33,770 bases of DNA from Thermoplasmata archaeon (GTDB lineage Archaea > Thermoplasmatota > Thermoplasmata > Sysuiplasmatales > Sysuiplasmataceae), in contig JAKABN010000007.1 of NCBI GenBank assembly GCA_021796895.1, positions 1 through 33,770 of the forward strand, written 5' to 3'. Positions 20,878 to 30,828 of the stretch are shown piece by piece (position 1 is the stretch's first letter; each line of letters opens with the position of its first letter). A program made the position numbers and the translations under genes. The notes under the pieces were generated by a model. The model did not search any database. It saw only the letters and a list, made by a program, of their open reading frames with translations, and was not told the DNA's origin.

Positions 20878-21672
20878 TCAGGCAAGTCCGGGCCTGCCAA
20901 TGAAATACTCAGTCCTGTAGACCAGCTCCACCAGCCCGTTCTTCTGGAAACGATCGAAGAGAGTACGCGCATCCGACAGCAGCGGACCGTAATCCGGAGA
21001 ACCGCGCACCGGAAGATATGACGATGACCTGAGCCTTCCCATCAGGCCGTCAAAGTCGAGGGTCTGCGAATTTGGCACCTCGCCGCAAGTGAATGGAAGA
21101 TTGCCGAAGAATTTTCCAATGACGCTTCTTTCCGAGCTCATCTGCGGCGCGCTTCCGGTTCCGTATTTTTTGAGCAGTTTGCCATACTCCGTCATGAATG
21201 GACTTGCATTGCCTGCTCTCGTATTCCAGACAATGAATACTTTTCCGTGGGGATGAAGCACCCTGAGGAATTCCGCCCGGACAGCCCCGGTGTCAAACCA
21301 GTGAAATGCCTGTCCTGCGGAAATAATATCAACGGAGCCGTCATGGAGCGCGGTCTGTTCCGCCGTCGCGCGTATGAAATGGCAGTTGCTCCTTCCGCCG
21401 AGTTCTCCTATGCAGGCATGAAGCATTTCGGAGTTGGGCTCTATGCAATACACGGTCGCACCTGTGTCTGCAAAAAGGGCGGACAGTTTACCCGTGCCGG
21501 CACCGACATCGGCGACTGATTCACCCGAATCGAAATATCCTTCCCCGGTTAACACATCCATGAGGGCGCGGGGATAAGACGGTCTGTGGAGAGCATAGTC
21601 CTCCACCCTGTTGGAGAACTTGAGTTTGCTGTCCACAGGCTGCACCTGTTGTTCTCTCTGCTTCTCAGACAT
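20878..21672 (-). CDS. Class I SAM-dependent methyltransferase, last gene of the SUF/JAMM run
   Basis: Start taken as ATG 21672 (MSEKQREQQVQPVDSKLKFSNRVEDYALHRPSYP); VADVGAGTGKLSALFADTGATVYCIEPN; AGQAFHWFD. Overlaps the JAMM gene by 8 nt. Confidence 0.85.
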   Translation of the reverse strand: MSEKQREQQVQPVDSKLKFSNRVEDYALHRPSYPRALMDVLTGEGYFDSGESVADVGAGTGKLSALFADTGATVYCIEPNSEMLHACIGELGGRSNCHFIRATAEQTALHDGSVDIISAGQAFHWFDTGAVRAEFLRVLHPHGKVFIVWNTRAGNASPFMTEYGKLLKKYGTGSAPQMSSERSVIGKFFGNLPFTCGEVPNSQTLDFDGLMGRLRSSSYLPVRGSPDYGPLLSDARTLFDRFQKNGLVELVYRTEYFIGRPGLA

Positions 21673-22087
21673 AAAGCAGCTCCTCCATGACAAAACGCGA
21701 TCTGTCATCCGCGAGTCTCCAGGAACGCATGCCGGCATTCTTGCCTGAGACCACACTGATGATAAGATAGGAGTAACCTGGCCATGCGTTCTGTCTGTCA
21801 AATTCAGACGGGACAGAAGGGTGATCCGGATGGGAATGATAATAGCCCAGCACCCTGAAACCGCCGGATGCGGATTCCTTTTCGCATTTCATGATTTCGA
21901 GAGGATCTATGACATATCTGTTCTCCCTGGATTCCGTCGCGGAATTCTTTGCCCTGCGCGATTCCGTGACCACGGAGTCGCTGCCTTTCCCGCCGACGAG
22001 GAAGCCGCAGCATTCTTCCGGGAATGTTTCCGATGCGTGCGTGATTATTGACTGGACGACATTGCTCCGCAGGTAAAGTGTCACCAT
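21665..22087 (-). CDS. JAMM/MPN metalloprotease (Mec/CysO-cysteine peptidase-like)
   Basis: 140 aa; JAMM signature: PEECCGFLVGG then GYYHSHPDHPSVPSEFDRQNAWPGYSYLI (E...HxHP...S..D). Confidence 0.9.
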   Translation of the reverse strand: MVTLYLRSNVVQSIITHASETFPEECCGFLVGGKGSDSVVTESRRAKNSATESRENRYVIDPLEIMKCEKESASGGFRVLGYYHSHPDHPSVPSEFDRQNAWPGYSYLIISVVSGKNAGMRSWRLADDRSRFVMEELLYV

Positions 22088-22123: not shown

Positions 22124-23374
22124 TCAGGCAAACACCTTTCTGACGACGCCGAGCGCCCTGACCAGCGCATCGATATCCTGCTTCCCGTTGTATATCTGGA
22201 ACGATGCCCTGGATGCCGACGGTATACCGAGTCTGTCCATGAGCGGTTGCGCACAGTGATGTCCGGACCTGATTGCAACTCCCTCCCTTCCGAGAATTTC
22301 TGCCGTGTCATGACCGTGAACCCCCTTAAGATTGAAGGAGATGACACCGCTCCTCTCCTCAGCGTCCTTCGGACCGTAAATCTCTATGTCTTCGTTTTCC
22401 ATCAGGCGGTTCATGGCGTACGCAATTATCTCCCTGTCGTATCTCTCGACATTATCCATTCCAATCGAGGAGAGATAGTCTATGGCTGCGCCAAGGCCTA
22501 TTGCGCCGCTGATGTTTGGCGTGCCCGCCTCAAACCTGTACGGGGGTTCGGCCCATTTTGAGCCGTGCTGGTGCACCTCGCTGATCATCTCGCCGCCTCC
22601 GAAAGCAGGCTCCATACCGCTCAGCAGCTCACTGCGGCCGTACAGCACTCCGATGCCTGTAGGCGCGAGCATTTTGTGCCCCGACAGCGCGAAGAAGTCG
22701 CACTCACTCGCCTTCACATCGACGGGAATATGGGGCGCGGACTGGGCTCCGTCGACTATGAATATGGACGAATGTTCATGGGCAATCCTTCCCATCTCCC
22801 TGATCGGATTTACGGTGCCGAGCACGTTCGATGCATGGGCCACCGTCACTATTTTCGTCCTTTCGTTGATCTTGCTCTCGAAATCCCCCATGTCGATCCG
22901 TCCCCATTCGTCTATATCGGCAAATTTTACTGTCACACCCTTCCTGGAAAGCATCTGCCATGGCACGATGTTGGAATGGTGTTCCATTACAGTGGTAAGC
23001 ACTTCGTCCCCGCGCTTCAGTTTCCATGTTCCGAGACTCAATGCAAGCACGTTCAGCGCCTCTGTAGAGCCGCGAAGGAAGACAATCTCCGACGGCGACC
23101 GGGCACCGATGAAGCGGGCGGCCTTGCCCCTTGCTTCCTCGTACCGCTCCGTTGCTTCCTCGCTCAGCGGGTATATGCCTCTGTGGACATTGGCGTTGCA
23201 GCGCCTCTCAAACTCATCCACAGCATTGATCACAAAGGCAGGTTTCTGGCTCGTTGCTGCGCTGTCGAGATAGACAAGCGACTCCCTTCCCTTCTCCGAG
23301 AACATGGGAAAATCGCCCTTCAGCGGCGAAATGTCTCCAAGTCGGTCAAGGGTTCGCATGGAAGCTCCACTCAC
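22124..23374 (-). CDS. sufS: Cysteine desulfurase SufS
   Basis: 416 aa; YLDSAATSQKP, FLRGSTEALNVLA, ALSGHKMLAPTGIGVLYG (PLP Lys), VAIRSGHHCAQPLM (active Cys). Confidence 0.93.
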   Translation of the reverse strand: MSGASMRTLDRLGDISPLKGDFPMFSEKGRESLVYLDSAATSQKPAFVINAVDEFERRCNANVHRGIYPLSEEATERYEEARGKAARFIGARSPSEIVFLRGSTEALNVLALSLGTWKLKRGDEVLTTVMEHHSNIVPWQMLSRKGVTVKFADIDEWGRIDMGDFESKINERTKIVTVAHASNVLGTVNPIREMGRIAHEHSSIFIVDGAQSAPHIPVDVKASECDFFALSGHKMLAPTGIGVLYGRSELLSGMEPAFGGGEMISEVHQHGSKWAEPPYRFEAGTPNISGAIGLGAAIDYLSSIGMDNVERYDREIIAYAMNRLMENEDIEIYGPKDAEERSGVISFNLKGVHGHDTAEILGREGVAIRSGHHCAQPLMDRLGIPSASRASFQIYNGKQDIDALVRALGVVRKVFA

Positions 23375-23682
23375 AGTTCCACAAGTATATCGTCCCCCTC
23401 CACTTTAAGCTCGTACTTCTGCAGATTTTCAGTTGCAGGGGGATTCTCCACTTCGCCGGTTTCGACATTGAATCTGGACAGGTGAAGAGGGCAGACAATC
23501 GTCCTTCCCATGAGAATGCCTCTGGAGAGGTCTGCATCCTCGTGGGTGCACGTCGCGTCCAGCGCGCTGTAATTCTCGCCGAGCCTGACAACCATGATAC
23601 TGCGGCCATCAAGCTCAATCTTCTTTATGCTGCGTCCTATAAAATCGGATCGCGATGCAACTCTTGTGAACGGCAATGACAC
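23371..23682 (-). CDS. Rieske-type [2Fe-2S] ferredoxin
   Basis: 103 aa; CTHEDADLSRG and CPLHLSRFNVETGE (CxH...CxxH). Confidence 0.9.
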   Translation of the reverse strand: MSLPFTRVASRSDFIGRSIKKIELDGRSIMVVRLGENYSALDATCTHEDADLSRGILMGRTIVCPLHLSRFNVETGEVENPPATENLQKYELKVEGDDILVEL

Positions 23683-25113
23683 TCACCTGTACTTGTAGTG
23701 CCCTTCGAAAATGCTCTCTCCGGGCTCCTTGATCTGATCCTTCACATACTTCTCGAATTCGATTTCGTCGAGATGTCTGGATGCTCTGAGCGACACGACG
23801 TTGTTCCACTTGTCCTCTATCTGGAACCGCAGTTTGTCGCGCACCGTATCCAGGGGAACCCTTGATATCACAGGATCGAAGAAACCGAGTACGAGCATTT
23901 TTTCCGCCTCGTCTCGGTCGAGCCCCCTGGACTGGACATAGTACAGCTGCTGATCATCCAGCTGGGAGACGGATGCCGAATGCGTCGCCTTGACACCGTT
24001 CGTCAGTATTTCCAGTCCAGGTATGGCATCGCACCGGGCATCCTTGCTCATGAGCATGCCGTGCTCGGCAAGATAGGAATTCGTATTGGCCGCATTTTCA
24101 CCGATCCTTATCATTCCGCGGAGAAGGGCTCTGGAATGTCCCTTCAGCACGCTTCTGACCGTAATACGGCCGTTAGTTGACTCTGCATCATGATGCAGAT
24201 CGGTCACGACGTCGAACCTCTGCTTTCCGTTGCCGAACAGTATCTCGTAATCGTCCGTGGACGCGCCGCGACCGACAAATCTTGTGTCAGCGCGTGATCT
24301 CGTCACATCGGAGCCCATCATGCTGGAAACCCAGTGCATCCTGCTGTCCCCTGAGGCAAGACACCTCTTGCTTGAAAGATACACTGCGGCGGACGAAAGG
24401 TTCTCAAGTGATGCATGATGCAGTTCGGCATTTCTGCCGAGCAGCACATCAGTCACACCGGAGAATAGCGACTTCTCGGTGAAATTTTCAGGAGAGAGTA
24501 TTTCCTCGATGACAGTGGCTGCGCTGTTATCGCCCAGCTGCACGATGTTCTGGCTGAATCTCGCTGCACCCGGCACATCCTCGATGTCCAGAATGTGTAC
24601 GGGGCTTTCGAGAGCAATACCGTCGGGGACGCGCAGAAAATATCCCGTGGAGAACATTGCGCTGTTGAGTGCAACGTAGACGTCATCCTTGGGACGCAAT
24701 CCCTTCCTGTCGAATGCATCCTTCAGCATGTCTCCGTGTTTTGAGACCGCATCACGCATCTCCTCGAAAATAGCACCCTTAGGCAGGTTGGACGCCATGT
24801 GGAATGCTCCTCCTGACTGAAGCATGAAAGTACCGCTGCTGACGAGATCGGCAAGTTCTTCAGGAACGTTATCTTTCCTGGCAGGCGGTTCGGCGACCGC
24901 CGCATCCGGTGCGTCGAACCTCGCGAGTGTTTCATATTTCACATACAGCGGATTCGGTTCCACTCTGGCAGACCTGAACACCTGCAGGGCGCGTCGCCTG
25001 TATTCCTTCAGCCACGCAGGCTCGTCGCCGATCTCAGGAATATCGGACCCGGCCGGTTTGAGAATGTCGTGCACAGTCAATGCCATAACAGAGCACCGTC
25101 GATCCTGATTCAC
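23683..25113 (-). CDS. sufD: Fe-S cluster assembly protein SufD
   Basis: 476 aa, SufBD family; [83 protein letters not shown] 25113 overlaps the sufB stop; ATG 25086 is an alternative start. Confidence 0.92.
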
Positions 25114-26513
25114 CCTACGGAGCCTGTCATCTCGAGCTGTATCAGCCTGTTCAGCTCGACCGCATACTCCATGGGCAGTTCCTTCGAGAAGACGTCAAGG
25201 AAACCCATGACGATCATGTTGAGTGCGTCTGCCTCACTGAGTCCCCTGGACATCAGGTAGAACAGCTGTTCTTCGCTTATCTTCCCGACCGTCGCCTCGT
25301 GTGTCGTCGATGCCGTTTCCTCATTAATCTCGTTGTACGGGTAGGTGTCCGTTCTGGATTTCTCATCCAGCAGAAGCGCGTCGCATCTGACGCTGCTCTT
25401 CGCTGAAGTTGCACCTTTCTCTATGTGCAGGAGGCCGCGGTATGTTGTTCTTCCGCCGTCCTTGCTCACGCTCTTGGATGTTATCCTGGATGTCGTATCG
25501 GGTGCGAAATGCAGTATCTTTGCGCCGGCATCCTGGTGCTGTTCCCTGCCCGCAAAGGCCACGGAAATGACCTCGCCCTTTGCTCTGGGGCCGAGCAGGT
25601 ACACGGACGGATATTTCATAGTCAGCTTTGATCCGATGTTTCCGTCTATCCATTCCACAGTCGCGTCCTCGTGCGCGAATGCCCTCTTGGTGACAAGGTT
25701 GTAGACATTGTTGGACCAGTTCTGTATAGTGGTATAACGGACATATGCGCCCTTCTTCGCAAGTATTTCCACCACTGCGGAATGCAGCGAGTCCTTGGAA
25801 TAGGTTGGTGCGGTGCAGCCTTCGATGTAGTGTATGCGACTCCTCTCTTCTGCTATTATCAGCGTTCTCTCGAACTGACCGACGCTTCTTGCATTGATCC
25901 TGAAATATGCCTGCAGCGGTATGTCAACCTCTACGCCTTCCGGTACATAGATGAAACTGCCGCCGCTCCAGACTGCGCTGTTGAGTGCGGCAAATTTGTT
26001 GTCTTCCGGCGGTATCACCGTGCCGAAGTATTCCTTGAATATTTCCGGATGTTCTTTCAGGCCCTCGTCCGTGCCCATGAATATAACGCCTTTCTTGCTC
26101 AGGTCTTCGCGTATCTTGTGATAGACGACCTCGCTGTCGTACTGGGCCCCGACGCCGCCGAGAAACTTCTTTTCCGCCTCCGGTATGCCGAGCTTGTCGA
26201 ATGTTCTCTTTACATAATCAGGAACATCGTCCCAGCTGTCGCTGTTCTTGCCGGAGGGGGCCATGTAGTAGTATATGCTGTCGAAGTCTATCTCGGCGAG
26301 ATCCTTGCCCCAGGCGGGAAGAGGCTTGCGGTTGAACAAATCCAGCGAGCGGAGTCTGAAGTCCAGCATCCACTGGGGTTCGTTCTTGTGTTTCGATATG
26401 GCTTCAACTACCTCTCTGCTCAGACCCCTCTTGGTCTGGAAGACGTACTTCGCGTCTTCGTCGTAGAATCCATACTTGCTGTAGTCACGATCCATCGTCT
26501 GTTCGTTTACCAA
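25110..26513 (-). CDS. sufB: Fe-S cluster assembly protein SufB
   Basis: 467 aa; [108 protein letters not shown]. Confidence 0.95.
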
Positions 26514-26557: not shown

Positions 26558-27988
26558 TCAGTACCTCGGCATGGACGAATCCACTTTTTCAGCCCATGCG
26601 TTGATGCCTCCCTTCAGATTCCTGACCTTTCTGAAACCGATGTCCTTCAGGAAATTCATTACGTAGGCGCTGCGCTGCCCCGACTTACAGTAGAGGATTA
26701 TGTCGTCTGCTGTGTTGAGTTCGCTCACCCTGGCAGGCACATCGTTCATGGGAATGAGTTTGGCGCCTTTTATGCGGCAAATCTCCCACTCCTGCGGCTC
26801 CCTCACGTCCACGAGCACCAGAGACTCGCCGGCGTCGAATTTTCTGTTCAGTTCCTCGACAGTAATCACATCCCCTTCGGCCTCGGCGTTGTGTGTTATG
26901 CCGCAGAACTGTTCGTAATCTATGAGCTCTTTGACCGTAGGATTGGTTCCGCAGACAGGGCACTCCGGATTCTTCCTGAGTTTCAGCTCCTTGAAACGCA
27001 TGCGCATCGCATCGAACAGGAGCAGTCTTCCAATCAGCGGTTCTCCCTGACCGAGTATCAGTTTTATTGTTTCCATCGCCTGAAGCGTCCCGACTGTTCC
27101 GGGCAGAACGCCCACGACTCCTCCTTCCGCGCAGGAAGGAACGAGTCCTGGGGGAGGCGGATTCTCATACAGGCACCTGTAGCACGGGCCCTTCCCTGCA
27201 TCAAACACGGATACCTGTCCCTCGAATCTGTATATCGAACCATAGACGTTTGGTTTGCCCAGTATGACGCATGCGTCGTTGACCAGGTAACGCGTGGGAA
27301 AATTGTCCGTGCCGTCGATGACCACATCGTAATTGCGTATGATGTCCAGTGCATTCTCCGACGTGATCTGAGCTTCGTGTTTGACCACGTTGATGTGCGG
27401 ATTTATACCCTTTATCTTCTCTTCCGCCGAATCGATTTTCTTCCTTCCCACATCCTTCTGCGTGTGTATGATCTGCCTCTGAAGATTGCTGAAGTCAACG
27501 GTATCAAAATCGACGATACCGATTGTTCCCACGCCTGCGGCTGCCAGATAAAGCAGCAGCGGCGAGCCGAGACCGCCTGCACCGATGACGAGGACGCGGG
27601 AATTTCTCAGCTTGAGCTGTCCCTCCAGACCTACCTCGGGGAGAAGCAGGTGCCTGCTGTATCTCTGAATATCTTCATAGGAGAATGCCTCCTCCAGTCC
27701 TGCTGCACCGCCGGCGATGGAAGGTATGATTGCAATTACATCGCCCTCCCTCACAGGAGTCCTGCCCCGTTCCAGATAACGGATATCATCCTCGTTCAGA
27801 TACACATTGACGAAGTTTCGTATCTTCCCTCCGTCATCATACAGGTGTTTCTTCAGCTGTATGCTGGATTCTGCCAGGCTATTCAGCACTTCCTCGACCG
27901 TTTCGCCCCTGAGTTCTACCGTATCCCTGTTTCCCACATACTGCCTCAGCGGCGTAGGAATCATTACCTTAACATTTGATGCCGTCAT
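26558..27988 (-). CDS. Triple-domain fusion: CysO/MoaD-like ubiquitin-fold sulfur carrier + MoeB/ThiF-type E1 + rhodanese
   Basis: 476 aa. N-terminal ~94 aa VKVMIPTPLRQYVG...KIRNFVNVYLNEDDIRYL...VIAIIPSIAGG; E1 VLVIGAGGLGSPLLLYLAAAGVGTIGIVDFDTVDFSNLQRQIIH, CYRC/CPVC zinc cysteines, VPSCAEGGVVGVLPG; rhodanese VLVDVREPQEWEI and ILYCKSGQRSAYV. Confidence 0.93.
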   Translation of the reverse strand: MTASNVKVMIPTPLRQYVGNRDTVELRGETVEEVLNSLAESSIQLKKHLYDDGGKIRNFVNVYLNEDDIRYLERGRTPVREGDVIAIIPSIAGGAAGLEEAFSYEDIQRYSRHLLLPEVGLEGQLKLRNSRVLVIGAGGLGSPLLLYLAAAGVGTIGIVDFDTVDFSNLQRQIIHTQKDVGRKKIDSAEEKIKGINPHINVVKHEAQITSENALDIIRNYDVVIDGTDNFPTRYLVNDACVILGKPNVYGSIYRFEGQVSVFDAGKGPCYRCLYENPPPPGLVPSCAEGGVVGVLPGTVGTLQAMETIKLILGQGEPLIGRLLLFDAMRMRFKELKLRKNPECPVCGTNPTVKELIDYEQFCGITHNAEAEGDVITVEELNRKFDAGESLVLVDVREPQEWEICRIKGAKLIPMNDVPARVSELNTADDIILYCKSGQRSAYVMNFLKDIGFRKVRNLKGGINAWAEKVDSSMPRY

Positions 27989-28917
27989 AAATTATCCTCC
28001 CAGAACTTTTCGCCAAGATACCGCTGGCCGCTGTCCGGAAATACCGTCACGATGTTTCCTCTCTTTTCTCTGCTGGCAATGTCCATGCATGCCTTGAGCG
28101 CCGCGCCTGAACTCACACCGAGAAGCAGTCCCTCCGTTCTGGCTGCCCTGATTACCATCTTCTGTGCATCTTCGGTACTGACGTAGATATGCTCGTCCGC
28201 AATGGATTCATCATATATGCCGGGTCTCACCGATGCATCCATTCTCTTCAGTCCCTCGATGCCGTGCAGGGGAGAGTCTGGTTCGACAGCCACCGTCCTG
28301 ACGGATTTCTTTCGCTCCTTCAGCAGGCGGCTCACGCCTGTGAAAGTTCCGCCAGTACCCAGTCCGCTTACGAAGTAATCAATTTCTCCGTCCGTCTGTC
28401 TGAGTATCTCCTGTCCCGTGGCGCAGTAGTGCGCCTTCCAGTTGCTGTTGTTGTTATACTGGTCTGCGTAAAAATAGAGATCCGGGTGTTCATCCGCCAT
28501 CTTTCTTGCAAGCCGCTGGGAACCGTCTGTGCCTTCCATTGGGTTGCTGAGAACAATTTCGGCACCGTATGCGCGGAGTATCTCCAGCTTCTCCTTCCCT
28601 ATATTTCCCGGAACCACTATCAGCGATTTCAATCCCCTGACTGCGCAGATCATCGAATATGCTATGCCGGTGTTTCCTGAGGAAGCGTCCAGCAGCACTC
28701 TGTCCTTTGTAAGTTTTCCCGAGTCTATTGCATCGTCCACTATGCTCAGAGCGGTTCTGTCCTTTACACTTCCTCCCGGGTTGAACCACTCTGCCTTTGC
28801 GTAAAGACGAATATTCGGCATGCTCTCAGTCATTCTGTCGAGCCTCAGAAGAGGAGTATTGCCAATCCTTCCGAGTATGTTGTCGCCGTACTGCATCCTC
28901 ATTTCATCGCATATCAC
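27985..28917 (-). CDS. PLP-dependent cysteine synthase family protein (CysM/CysK-like)
   Basis: 310 aa; IGNTPLLRL, KAEWFNPGGSVKDRTALSIVDDA (PLP Lys), DASSGNTGIAYSM, SGLGTGGTFTGVSRLLKE, FPDSGQRYLGEKFW. Overlaps the fusion gene by 4 nt. Confidence 0.92.
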   Translation of the reverse strand: MICDEMRMQYGDNILGRIGNTPLLRLDRMTESMPNIRLYAKAEWFNPGGSVKDRTALSIVDDAIDSGKLTKDRVLLDASSGNTGIAYSMICAVRGLKSLIVVPGNIGKEKLEILRAYGAEIVLSNPMEGTDGSQRLARKMADEHPDLYFYADQYNNNSNWKAHYCATGQEILRQTDGEIDYFVSGLGTGGTFTGVSRLLKERKKSVRTVAVEPDSPLHGIEGLKRMDASVRPGIYDESIADEHIYVSTEDAQKMVIRAARTEGLLLGVSSGAALKACMDIASREKRGNIVTVFPDSGQRYLGEKFWEDNL

Positions 28918-29291
28918 CGAACAGCGCCTCCTGCAGTCGCCTGATGCATTGTGTTAAGTGAAAGAGTAGCACACTTCATCCTTACAGCACTGAGTGGAAT
29001 GTGCAGCATCTCCTTTATGTCGTCTGCGGTAAGCTTAGCGACTTCCGCCAGCATCATGCCCTTCACCTTTTCAGTCAGCATGGAGGCTGAAGCCTGGCTT
29101 ATGGCGCATCCCCGTCCGTCGAACTTGACATCTTCAATTATGCCGTCGTTGACCCTCAGGTATACCGTTATGTCGTCGCCGCACACGGGATTATTGCCGT
29201 GGCTGAACATGTCCGGATGCTCTATAACTCCCTTGTTCTGGGGATTCTTGTAGTGTTCGATTATTTCTTCCTGATAAATATCAAATGCCAT
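28914..29291 (-). CDS. sufU: Fe-S cluster scaffold/sulfur-transfer protein SufU/IscU-like
   Basis: Start taken as ATG 29291 (MAFDIYQEEIIEHYKNPQNKG); three conserved Cys: NPVCGDDI, GRGCAISQASASML, RMKCATLSLNTM. Confidence 0.92.
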   Translation of the reverse strand: MAFDIYQEEIIEHYKNPQNKGVIEHPDMFSHGNNPVCGDDITVYLRVNDGIIEDVKFDGRGCAISQASASMLTEKVKGMMLAEVAKLTADDIKEMLHIPLSAVRMKCATLSLNTMHQATAGGAVR

Positions 29292-29304
29292 ATTGTTGCG
29301 CCTT

Positions 29305-30066
29305 CTAACCCGGTATAGCCGGCTCCTTGAGCCAGTCATATCCCTTTTCCTCCAGCTCTTTGGCCAGTTCTCTTCCGCCGCTCTTCACTATTCTGCCGTC
29401 CACTACAACGTGAACGAACTGTGGAGTGATGTACTGCAGGAGCCGCTGGTAGTGTGTAACCAGCACCAGGCCGATGCCGGGGCCGGTCATGGTGTTAATG
29501 GCGTTTGAGACAATTTTGAGAGAATCGATGTCAAGACCACTGTCTGTCTCATCCAGTATTCCAAATTTTGGCTGCAGCACTGCCATCTGCAGTACCTCAG
29601 CCCTCTTCTTCTCGCCTCCGGAAAAACCTTCATTCAGAGAGCGGCCTATGAAATTCTCGTCAATGCCCAGAAGATTCACCTTCTCCTTCAGCAGCCTGAA
29701 GAACTTCGTCGGGCTGAGCTGGTTATCCGCGTGGGAGCCGTTGTAAGCTATCCTGAGAAAATTACCCAGCCTCACGCCGGGCACTTCAACGGGGTACTGG
29801 AAGCCGAGGAATAGGCCAATCTTCGCCCTCCTGTCCGGCGTCAGTGTCATGACGTCCTGGCCATCCAGCAGAACCTGACCCCCCGTCACATGATACTTCG
29901 GGTGACCCATCAGCGCATAGCTGAGCGTGCTCTTTCCGGAACCGTTTGGTCCCATGATTGCATGGATTTCCCCCTGCCTCACGGTAAGGTTGATTCCTTT
30001 GAGTATCTTTTTTCCCTCTATACTGACCTGCAGGTCCTTAATCACAAGTTCCGAAACCATTGCCAT
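29305..30066 (-). CDS. sufC: Fe-S cluster assembly ATPase SufC
   Basis: 253 aa; Walker A MGPNGSGKSTLSYALMGHPKY, signature FSGGEKKRAEVLQMAVLQPKFGILDETDSGLDIDSL. Confidence 0.95.
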   Translation of the reverse strand: MAMVSELVIKDLQVSIEGKKILKGINLTVRQGEIHAIMGPNGSGKSTLSYALMGHPKYHVTGGQVLLDGQDVMTLTPDRRAKIGLFLGFQYPVEVPGVRLGNFLRIAYNGSHADNQLSPTKFFRLLKEKVNLLGIDENFIGRSLNEGFSGGEKKRAEVLQMAVLQPKFGILDETDSGLDIDSLKIVSNAINTMTGPGIGLVLVTHYQRLLQYITPQFVHVVVDGRIVKSGGRELAKELEEKGYDWLKEPAIPG

Positions 30067-30166: not shown

Positions 30167-30195
30167 ATGACTTGCTGAAGTCTTTCAGTGGAATA

Positions 30196-30828
30196 ATGGA
30201 TTCTGACCTCTCCATGCTTGGCGAATCGAAGGCGAAGATCATAGCTAGCCTTGGAGAAGGAGAGAAGACGGGCCAGCAGCTTGCGGGTCTGCTCGACGTG
30301 AACACGACTGCAGTCAGGGAACACATGGATGCCCTGGAAAGAATGGGCATCATTGCGTCACGTTTCGTCAATCTGGGCGTTGGAAGACCAAGGAAGGTGT
30401 ATCATCTCACTCCCCTTGGGGTTGAACTGCTTCCGAAACATTATGACACGCTGCTTAACGTGCTCATGAGAAAAATACACGAAAAGAGCGGAGATGTTCT
30501 TCTGAGCCAGCTCATCTCTGAGGTCGTCAGGGATTTCAACAGGGATGCAGATGAGGGAAGCAGGCTCCCGATCGAGGAGCGCATCAAGAAGGTTGTGGAT
30601 TTCCTGAACCTGATGGGTTTCATGGCCACTGTGGAGAAAGATGGAGAGAGAACGTTTGTGGTCAGGCACAACTGTATTTTCAACAAGACAGCAAAGCTCT
30701 TCTCGAGCGTGCTGTGTAACGAATGCGATACATCGTTTGTAAAGGAGCCAATAGGCAAGGCGGAAGTGGAACTCATCTCGTGTATAGGCAAAGGCGACAC
30801 ATCCTGCAAAAATCTCATAAAAACGTGA
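30196..30828 (+). CDS. SufR-like winged-helix regulator with C-terminal cysteine cluster (putative Fe-S sensor)
   Basis: wHTH KIIASLGEGEKTGQQLAGLLDVNTTAVREHMDALERMGIIASRFVNLGVGRPRKVYHLTPLG; C-terminal CIFNKTAKLFSSVLCNECDTSF...LISCIGKGDTSC. Start taken as ATG 30196; divergent to sufC. Confidence 0.85.
   Translation: MDSDLSMLGESKAKIIASLGEGEKTGQQLAGLLDVNTTAVREHMDALERMGIIASRFVNLGVGRPRKVYHLTPLGVELLPKHYDTLLNVLMRKIHEKSGDVLLSQLISEVVRDFNRDADEGSRLPIEERIKKVVDFLNLMGFMATVEKDGERTFVVRHNCIFNKTAKLFSSVLCNECDTSFVKEPIGKAEVELISCIGKGDTSCKNLIKT

What the first reader, a model, noticed from the sequence alone, without database searches (positions are those of the whole stretch)
21665..22087. Mec-like JAMM peptidase downstream of sufS as candidate processor of the fused carrier
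Seen: intact JAMM residues (E in PEECCGF; HSHPDHPSVPSEFD). Known: Mec-type JAMM enzymes release cysteine from CysO-cysteine. Inference: with the carrier in the same operon but fused internally, this enzyme might cut after Gly-Gly as well as release cysteine.
Basis: partly seen in the sequence, partly recalled or inferred. Interest (0 to 1): 0.6.

Follow-up and report, generated by a model that had tools for sequence, protein, structure and literature searches.

The report
Protease that frees a fused sulfur carrier
In these archaea a small sulfur-carrying protein is made joined to the enzyme that activates it, and the neighbouring metal protease described here very probably cuts the two apart after a Gly-Gly (the way ubiquitin precursors are cut): lineages that lose the protease also lose the join, and where they keep the carrier beside its enzyme it ends exactly at Gly-Gly.

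Summary
In detail: window 22087-21665(-) is an intact 140-aa JAMM/MPN+ protease (E25, H84, H86, S94, D97). It stands near the end of a SUF operon that also encodes a CysM-like enzyme and a CysO-MoeB-rhodanese fusion whose Gly-Gly (aa 93-94) is internal. (1) In a sister family, all 68 genomes with the fusion have this JAMM and none of 15 without it do. (2) Seven JAMM-less genomes (two clades) keep a free carrier ending exactly at Gly-Gly. (3) In bacterial clusters with this JAMM, all 29 unfused CysO-like carriers have extra residues after Gly-Gly, so they too need uncapping. (4) In 87 distinct fusions Gly-Gly is invariant and P1' is never proline, although P2' is proline in 48%. (5) Several genomes lack the CysM orthologue but keep fusion and JAMM. 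The tree puts it with cysteine-synthase/CysO-linked JAMMs, not with haloarchaeal desampylases. JAMM removal of Gly-Gly caps (QbsD, PtmS1, HvJAMM1 on SAMP1-MoaE) is known, and MoaD-MoeB-rhodanese fusions have been listed before; the E1 itself as the cap, coupled to the JAMM, appears to be a new variant. Cleavage and cysteine release were not measured.

The parts
21665..22087 (-). JAMM/MPN+ metalloprotease (M67 family), 140 aa; catalytic E25 (22015-22013), H84 (21838-21836), H86 (21832-21830), S94 (21808-21806), D97 (21799-21797)
26558..27988 (-). Precursor: CysO-like carrier + MoeB-type E1 + rhodanese in one 476-aa frame
27707..27988 (-). Carrier domain (aa 1-94), ends ...PSIAGG; Gly93-Gly94 at 27712-27707, invariant in 87 distinct fusions
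27680..27706 (-). Linker AAGLEEAFS (aa 95-103); predicted cut Gly94|Ala95 between 27707 and 27706; within the low-confidence (probably flexible) stretch 91-115 of the model; no in-frame ATG/GTG/TTG at codons 89-125
26561..27679 (-). E1 (MoeB; CYRC 269-272, CPVC 343-346) and rhodanese (active-loop Cys434 in CKSGQRS) part freed by the cut
27985..28917 (-). CysM-like PLP cysteine synthase (predicted partner of the matured carrier)
22124..23374 (-). sufS cysteine desulfurase, immediately upstream of the JAMM
23371..26513 (-). Rieske ferredoxin, sufD and sufB between the fusion and sufS
28914..30066 (-). sufU and sufC at the head of the operon
20878..21672 (-). Class I methyltransferase; its ATG (21672) overlaps the JAMM stop by 8 nt (ATGTCTGA); role unknown
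30172..30828 (+). SufR-like regulator, divergent from sufC
   Evidence: TIGR02702, 52 bits, below its cut-off

Best explanation
The JAMM is the maturation protease of the sulfur carrier encoded in the same operon. The carrier is made as the N-terminal part of its own activating enzyme, so its Gly-Gly carboxyl end is blocked. The JAMM hydrolyses the bond after Gly94, freeing a CysO-like carrier with a Gly-Gly end and a separate MoeB-rhodanese (MoeZ-like) enzyme. That enzyme then adenylates and thiocarboxylates the carrier, and the CysM-like enzyme uses it to form a carrier-cysteine adduct. Because the adduct is also an amide after the same Gly-Gly (Gly-Gly-Cys), the same active site most likely releases cysteine and recycles the carrier. 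Shown here: intact protease, fusion, covariation, capping pattern. Inferred: the cut itself, its exact bond, and cysteine release.
For: Family f9 (103 genomes): 68/68 genomes with the fusion have the JAMM, 0/15 without it do (Fisher 8e-17; 7 state changes for each trait on the E1 tree). Seven JAMM-less genomes in two clades keep a free carrier whose stop codon directly follows Gly-Gly. In bacterial clusters with the same JAMM, all 29 unfused CysO-like carriers carry residues after AGG, whereas 21 of 23 other Ubls of the class end at GG and the other two are MoaD-MoaE fusions. 87 distinct fusions: GG 87/87, P1' Pro 0/87 (Ser/Ala/Thr 70) against 48% Pro at P2' and 16% in the linker. At least seven genomes lack the CysM orthologue but keep fusion and JAMM. 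JAMM tree: window inside a supported clade (SH-aLRT 95) of cysM/Ubl-linked JAMMs including SRU_2040. One bacterial locus fuses CysM to the JAMM (L134), favouring the cysteine-release role. Precedents: HvJAMM1 cuts SAMP1-MoaE precisely after its C-terminal glycines, dependent on jamm1 in vivo (PMC4443979); PtmS1/QbsD uncap carriers (PMC6006322); DR0402 cuts MoaD-MoaE (PMC8832034).
Against: No cleavage was measured. On well-supported branches only 2 of the 7 independent contrasts remain. In eight of the 15 fusion-less genomes no CysO-type carrier abuts the E1 gene (G345 has a GG-ending one about 1 kb away), so one block deletion could explain those. G097 (another family) has a related JAMM with a free GG-ending carrier, so coupling is not universal. 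The genome holds two other Ubls that already end at GG, so a matured fused carrier may not be strictly needed.
Confidence: 0.82

Rival explanations
1. The JAMM is only a Mec-type hydrolase that releases cysteine from carrier-Cys; the fusion acts uncut or is cut by another protease.
For: In the window and most relatives the JAMM sits with a CysM-like gene; a CysM-JAMM fusion exists; in M. tuberculosis Mec hydrolyses CysO-Cys (PMC3227635) and CysO already ends at GG.
Against: At least seven genomes without the CysM orthologue keep fusion and JAMM; JAMM absence follows absence of the fusion; unfused carriers with this JAMM are capped after GG.
Confidence: 0.08
2. The JAMM is a desampylase that removes ubiquitin-like conjugates from many proteins, and its place in the operon is incidental.
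For: Its only NCBIfam hit is haloarchaeal desampylase NF041370 (94.6 bits); the closest fold is PfJAMM1-SAMP2.
Against: Below that family's cut-off of 130 bits; haloarchaeal desampylases fall outside its clade; conserved linkage to CysM/CysO/MoeB-rhodanese. It could be an extra activity.
Confidence: 0.06
3. Fusion and JAMM covary only because adjacent genes are deleted together, without functional coupling.
For: In f9 the genes lie as cysM-JAMM-[carrier-E1-rhodanese], so one deletion can remove cysM, JAMM and the carrier part.
Against: Two JAMM-less clades keep the carrier, ended by a stop exactly after Gly-Gly; in the window's own family the JAMM is four genes away yet retained; the capped free carriers and the P1' pattern do not depend on f9 deletions.
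Confidence: 0.04

Closest known systems
QbsD (thioquinolobactin) and PtmS1 (thioplatensimycin) JAMM proteases with capped sulfur carriers
   Same: A JAMM encoded beside a carrier with residues after Gly-Gly; uncapping precedes thiocarboxylation (PMC6006322).
HvJAMM1 on SAMP1-MoaE and DR0402 on MoaD-MoaE
   Same: JAMM cleavage of a linear Ubl fusion after Gly-Gly (PMC4443979, PMC8832034).
   Different: The fused partner is the acceptor enzyme MoaE (Moco synthesis), not the E1; SAMP1-MoaE is an engineered fusion in Haloferax.
M. tuberculosis CysM-CysO-Mec with MoeZR
   Same: Same enzyme set: CysM-like, CysO-like, MoeB-rhodanese, JAMM (PMC3227635).
   Different: M. tuberculosis CysO is a separate protein ending at GG; a SUF link is not part of that pathway as described in the passages read.
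Operon types 4b/4c of Iyer et al. 2006 (Ubl, E1-rhodanese, JAB, cysteine synthase)
   Same: Same gene set, including Salinibacter ruber, whose JAB SRU_2040 falls in the window's JAMM clade (PMC1779556).
   Different: Carrier-E1-rhodanese fusions or carrier maturation are not described for this type in the passages read.
MoaD-MoeBR fusions listed in a 2024 survey of archaeal fusions
   Same: The same fused architecture, chiefly in unclassified Euryarchaeota and Poseidoniales, possibly from Acidobacteria (PMC11237513).
   Different: Treated there under molybdopterin synthesis, without a link to CysM or to a JAMM for this fusion in the passages read.
CsRpn11 and the Caldiarchaeum ubiquitin precursor
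   Same: A JAMM cuts a precursor exactly after Gly-Gly, and residues after the cut affect the rate (PMC6043591).
   Different: True ubiquitin conjugation system; only distantly related JAMM.

Membership tests
JAMM/MPN+ metalloproteases | Catalytic E plus HxH-x7-S-x2-D | tested here: met
   E25, H84, H86, S94, D97
JAMM/MPN+ metalloproteases | MPN fold | tested here: met
   AF2 pLDDT 94; PDB matches PfJAMM1, Rpn11, BRCC36
JAMM/MPN+ metalloproteases | Zn-dependent isopeptide/peptide hydrolysis | not testable with these tools
   needs an assay
Mec (CysO-cysteine hydrolase) | Encoded with CysM and a CysO-like carrier | tested here: met
Mec (CysO-cysteine hydrolase) | Groups with mycobacterial Mec in a tree | not tested
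   no Mec sequence was held; Rubrobacter CysM/CysO-linked JAMMs do fall in the clade
Mec (CysO-cysteine hydrolase) | Releases cysteine from CysO-Cys | not testable with these tools
   needs an assay
Haloarchaeal desampylase (NF041370, HvJAMM1-like) | Score above the curated cut-off of 130 bits | tested here: not met
   94.6 bits
Haloarchaeal desampylase (NF041370, HvJAMM1-like) | Groups with haloarchaeal desampylases | tested here: not met
   three plasmid-borne desampylases lie outside the window's clade
Carrier-uncapping JAMM (QbsD/PtmS1 type) | Partner carrier has residues after Gly-Gly | tested here: met
   fusion in the window; 29/29 capped free carriers in related clusters
Carrier-uncapping JAMM (QbsD/PtmS1 type) | Protease removes the cap | not testable with these tools
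   only covariation is available
CysO sulfur carrier | Beta-grasp domain closest to CysO, ending in Gly-Gly | tested here: met
   CysO is the best PDB hit, 1.7e-14
CysO sulfur carrier | Gly-Gly at the free C-terminus as translated | tested here: not met
   internal at aa 93-94 of 476; free only if cleaved

The most novel reading that the evidence does not exclude
Ubiquitin-style precursor processing is an obligatory, conserved step of a CysO-type sulfur pathway in many Thermoplasmata and bacteria. The carrier is made capped, either by a short tail or by its own E1-rhodanese as a 1:1 zymogen, and one JAMM does both jobs with the same Gly-Gly|X cut: maturing the carrier and releasing cysteine. 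The fusion would keep the carrier inactive until cut, so the JAMM gates sulfur flow.
Probability: 0.55. Interest if true: 0.68.

Novelty: new variant of a known kind. Interest (0 to 1): 0.56.

Why it matters
It proposes a function for two listed but unexplained features, carrier-E1-rhodanese fusions and the JAMM beside them, and points to a prokaryotic ubiquitin-like precursor whose cap is its own activating enzyme. Natural absences of the protease together with the fusion give a ready-made test, and the enzyme pair is small enough to assay directly. It also warns that CysO-like carriers cloned from such clusters would be inactive precursors unless trimmed to Gly-Gly.

Tried and rejected
Internal translation start for the E1 half: no ATG/GTG/TTG in frame at codons 89-125, rejected for the usual start codons. 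Original QbsD/QbsE paper not held; used as cited in PMC6006322. Plasmid search gave mostly phage-tail JAB domains and only a few useful relatives. The defence-system library hit only through the generic JAB and E1 folds; no E2-like gene is among the operon genes annotated here, so an anti-phage conjugation system was rejected. A first count of catalytic positions was off by one because the row lacked Met1; corrected. One DNA reference was out of frame and was not needed again.

Full report
What is there. The window is a whole contig of an archaeal draft genome (2.07 Mb, 78.8% complete); a same-family genome is recorded as 'Thermoplasmata archaeon' (G004 contig C30 and L110 share the contig length 133123). 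On the minus strand lies one run of genes: sufC, sufU, a CysM-like cysteine synthase, a carrier-E1-rhodanese fusion, sufB, sufD, a Rieske ferredoxin, sufS, the JAMM, and a methyltransferase whose start overlaps the JAMM stop. The order is the same in congeners and the sister genus. The JAMM at 22087-21665 is intact and confidently folded. The fusion's first 94 residues resemble M. tuberculosis CysO most among solved structures, with the CysO chain end falling on window Gly94; the rest is MoeB plus rhodanese with its cysteines. Four other Ubls of the same genome were seen: two end exactly at GG, one ends GGRCS and one GGS.

Association across genomes. Among 60 relatives the JAMM's closest homologues are found in the families that have the fusion (f1, f9, f21). 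In f9 and f21 the order is cysM-JAMM-[carrier-E1-rhodanese], directly adjacent. In a wider draw of 293 genomes of the phylum, genomes of f40 and f48, whose MoeB-rhodanese lacks the carrier part, do not appear in the JAMM list, while nearly all genomes with a full fusion do. G313 has a stop after the carrier and no JAMM; G100 has its fusion at a contig end, and G005's SUF cluster ends at a contig edge where the JAMM would follow.

The natural experiment. In family f9 (103 genomes) I scored fusion and JAMM at E<1e-6. All 68 fused genomes have the JAMM; all 15 with an unfused E1-rhodanese lack it (Fisher p 8e-17). On a tree of 65 E1-rhodanese sequences each trait changes seven times, and apart from G005 (contig edge, left out of the JAMM scoring) every row has the same state for both. 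Counting only well-supported branches leaves two independent contrasts, so the phylogenetically strict test is not significant by itself. Seven of the JAMM-less genomes, in two clades (G313, G374, G400, G408; G342, G343, G344), keep a carrier next to the E1, and in each the stop codon follows Gly-Gly immediately (e.g. ...IVPALAGG-stop in G313). The remaining eight have no CysO-type carrier abutting the E1 (G345 has a GG-ending one about 1 kb away) and could be single deletions. Conversely, G353, G383, G384, G386, G363, G258 and G261 lack a close CysM orthologue (only 39-42% identical, longer frames remain, probably cystathionine beta-synthase) yet keep fusion and JAMM, and even the fast-evolving JAMMs among them keep H, H, S and D. 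So the JAMM tracks the fusion rather than CysM.

Bacterial relatives. A scan of named genomes with the JAMM alignment returned 80 loci, mostly from Acidobacteria, Armatimonadetes-type, Rubrobacter and Deltaproteobacteria records, many with cysM-JAMM-fusion, others with cysM-JAMM-carrier-MoeZ as separate genes. In all 29 complete unfused cases the carrier has residues after AGG: short tails such as VCR, AL, TALRCICS or GRCK, and a few long ones (Fisher test against seven uncapped carriers of JAMM-less genomes, p 1.2e-7). As a control, 21 of 23 other Ubls from the window's class end exactly at GG; the other two are MoaD-MoaE fusions, both from genomes with a JAMM homologue.

Cleavage-site pattern. 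Over 87 distinct fusions the carrier ends in GG every time (AGG 86, SGG 1), followed by a linker of 7-42 residues. P1' is Ser, Ala or Thr in 70 and never Pro; P2' is Pro in 42; linkers are 16% Pro (naive p 2e-7; the sequences are related, so this overstates the evidence). Without cleavage there is no evident reason for an internal GG to be invariant or for Pro to be avoided at exactly that position. In the AlphaFold2 model residues 91-115 have pLDDT under 50, in keeping with an exposed tether. No usual start codon lies in frame in the linker, so the E1 half is not obviously made by internal initiation.

Phylogeny. In a tree of 127 JAMMs the window lies in a clade of 94 (SH-aLRT 95), nearly all cysteine-synthase/carrier-linked, with SRU_2040 of Salinibacter ruber, an organism whose operon was listed as type 4c in 2006. 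Haloarchaeal desampylases, PfJAMM1, DSY2949 and the JAMMs of the two MoaD-MoaE genomes lie outside it. Many inner branches are weak (143 columns). Fused and free states are intermingled, so fusion arose or was lost repeatedly beside the same JAMM family.

Mechanism. Known: Mec releases cysteine from CysO-Cys and MoeZR thiocarboxylates CysO (PMC3227635); JAMMs uncap carriers (PMC6006322) and cut Ubl fusions after Gly-Gly (PMC4443979, PMC8832034, PMC6043591); a MoaD-MoaE fusion of M. tuberculosis must be cut between Gly82 and Ser83 to work (PMC4326299). Inferred here: the window JAMM cuts Gly94|Ala95. An E1 cannot adenylate a blocked carboxylate, so the fused carrier needs a cut to act as a sulfur carrier. 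The carrier-Cys adduct, as an amide after the same Gly-Gly, is chemically the same kind of substrate, which makes one enzyme for both steps the simplest reading. One bacterial locus (L134) fuses CysM to the JAMM in one frame, which fits the cysteine-release role.

Novelty. The fusion has been listed before as MoaD-MoeBR (PMC11237513) and JAMM uncapping is known. I found no paper in the held library that links the two or notes the E1 as the cap; that library lacks most subscription journals. I therefore rate it a new variant of a known kind.

Noticed in passing
L126, L129, L131, L156, L162, L167, L170, L174 (carrier C-termini): Free CysO-like carriers, mostly from Acidobacteria records, share a short tail after Gly-Gly with a C-x-C pattern (e.g. 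TALRCICS, SMIRCICS, RPLRCACS, MPLRCVCS); a conserved propeptide with two cysteines is unexplained.
   Followed up: no
G000:C166:15717-15953 (L108) and G003:C1:174162-174398 (L311): A second, MoaD-like Ubl of the window's genome ends VSGGRCS, and its counterpart in G003 ends GGLCL; it may be another substrate of the JAMM.
   Followed up: partly
L068/L069 with L022/L023 (G055, G030): Two genomes of the class encode MoaD-MoaE fusions and a distant JAMM, parallel to Deinococcus DR0402 and its MoaD-MoaE substrate.
   Followed up: no
L134:1-1467; possibly L227: CysM and the JAMM are fused in one reading frame in a Vicinamibacteria record; L227 shows a similar frame with a damaged CysM end.
   Followed up: partly
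window 30172-30828: A SufR-like regulator stands divergent to sufC; homologues stand at the same cluster in family f9.
   Followed up: partly
window 20878-21672: A class I methyltransferase is apparently translationally coupled to the JAMM (8-nt overlap) and follows it in several relatives; role unknown.
   Followed up: no
window 23371-23682: A Rieske-type ferredoxin gene sits inside the SUF operon between sufD and sufS in the family's genomes examined.
   Followed up: no
L115, L133, L161 (Fimbriimonadales/HR15) and L137, L139, L188 (Brocadia, Jettenia): cysM-JAMM pairs without any carrier or E1 nearby; their carrier must be encoded elsewhere or be different.
   Followed up: no
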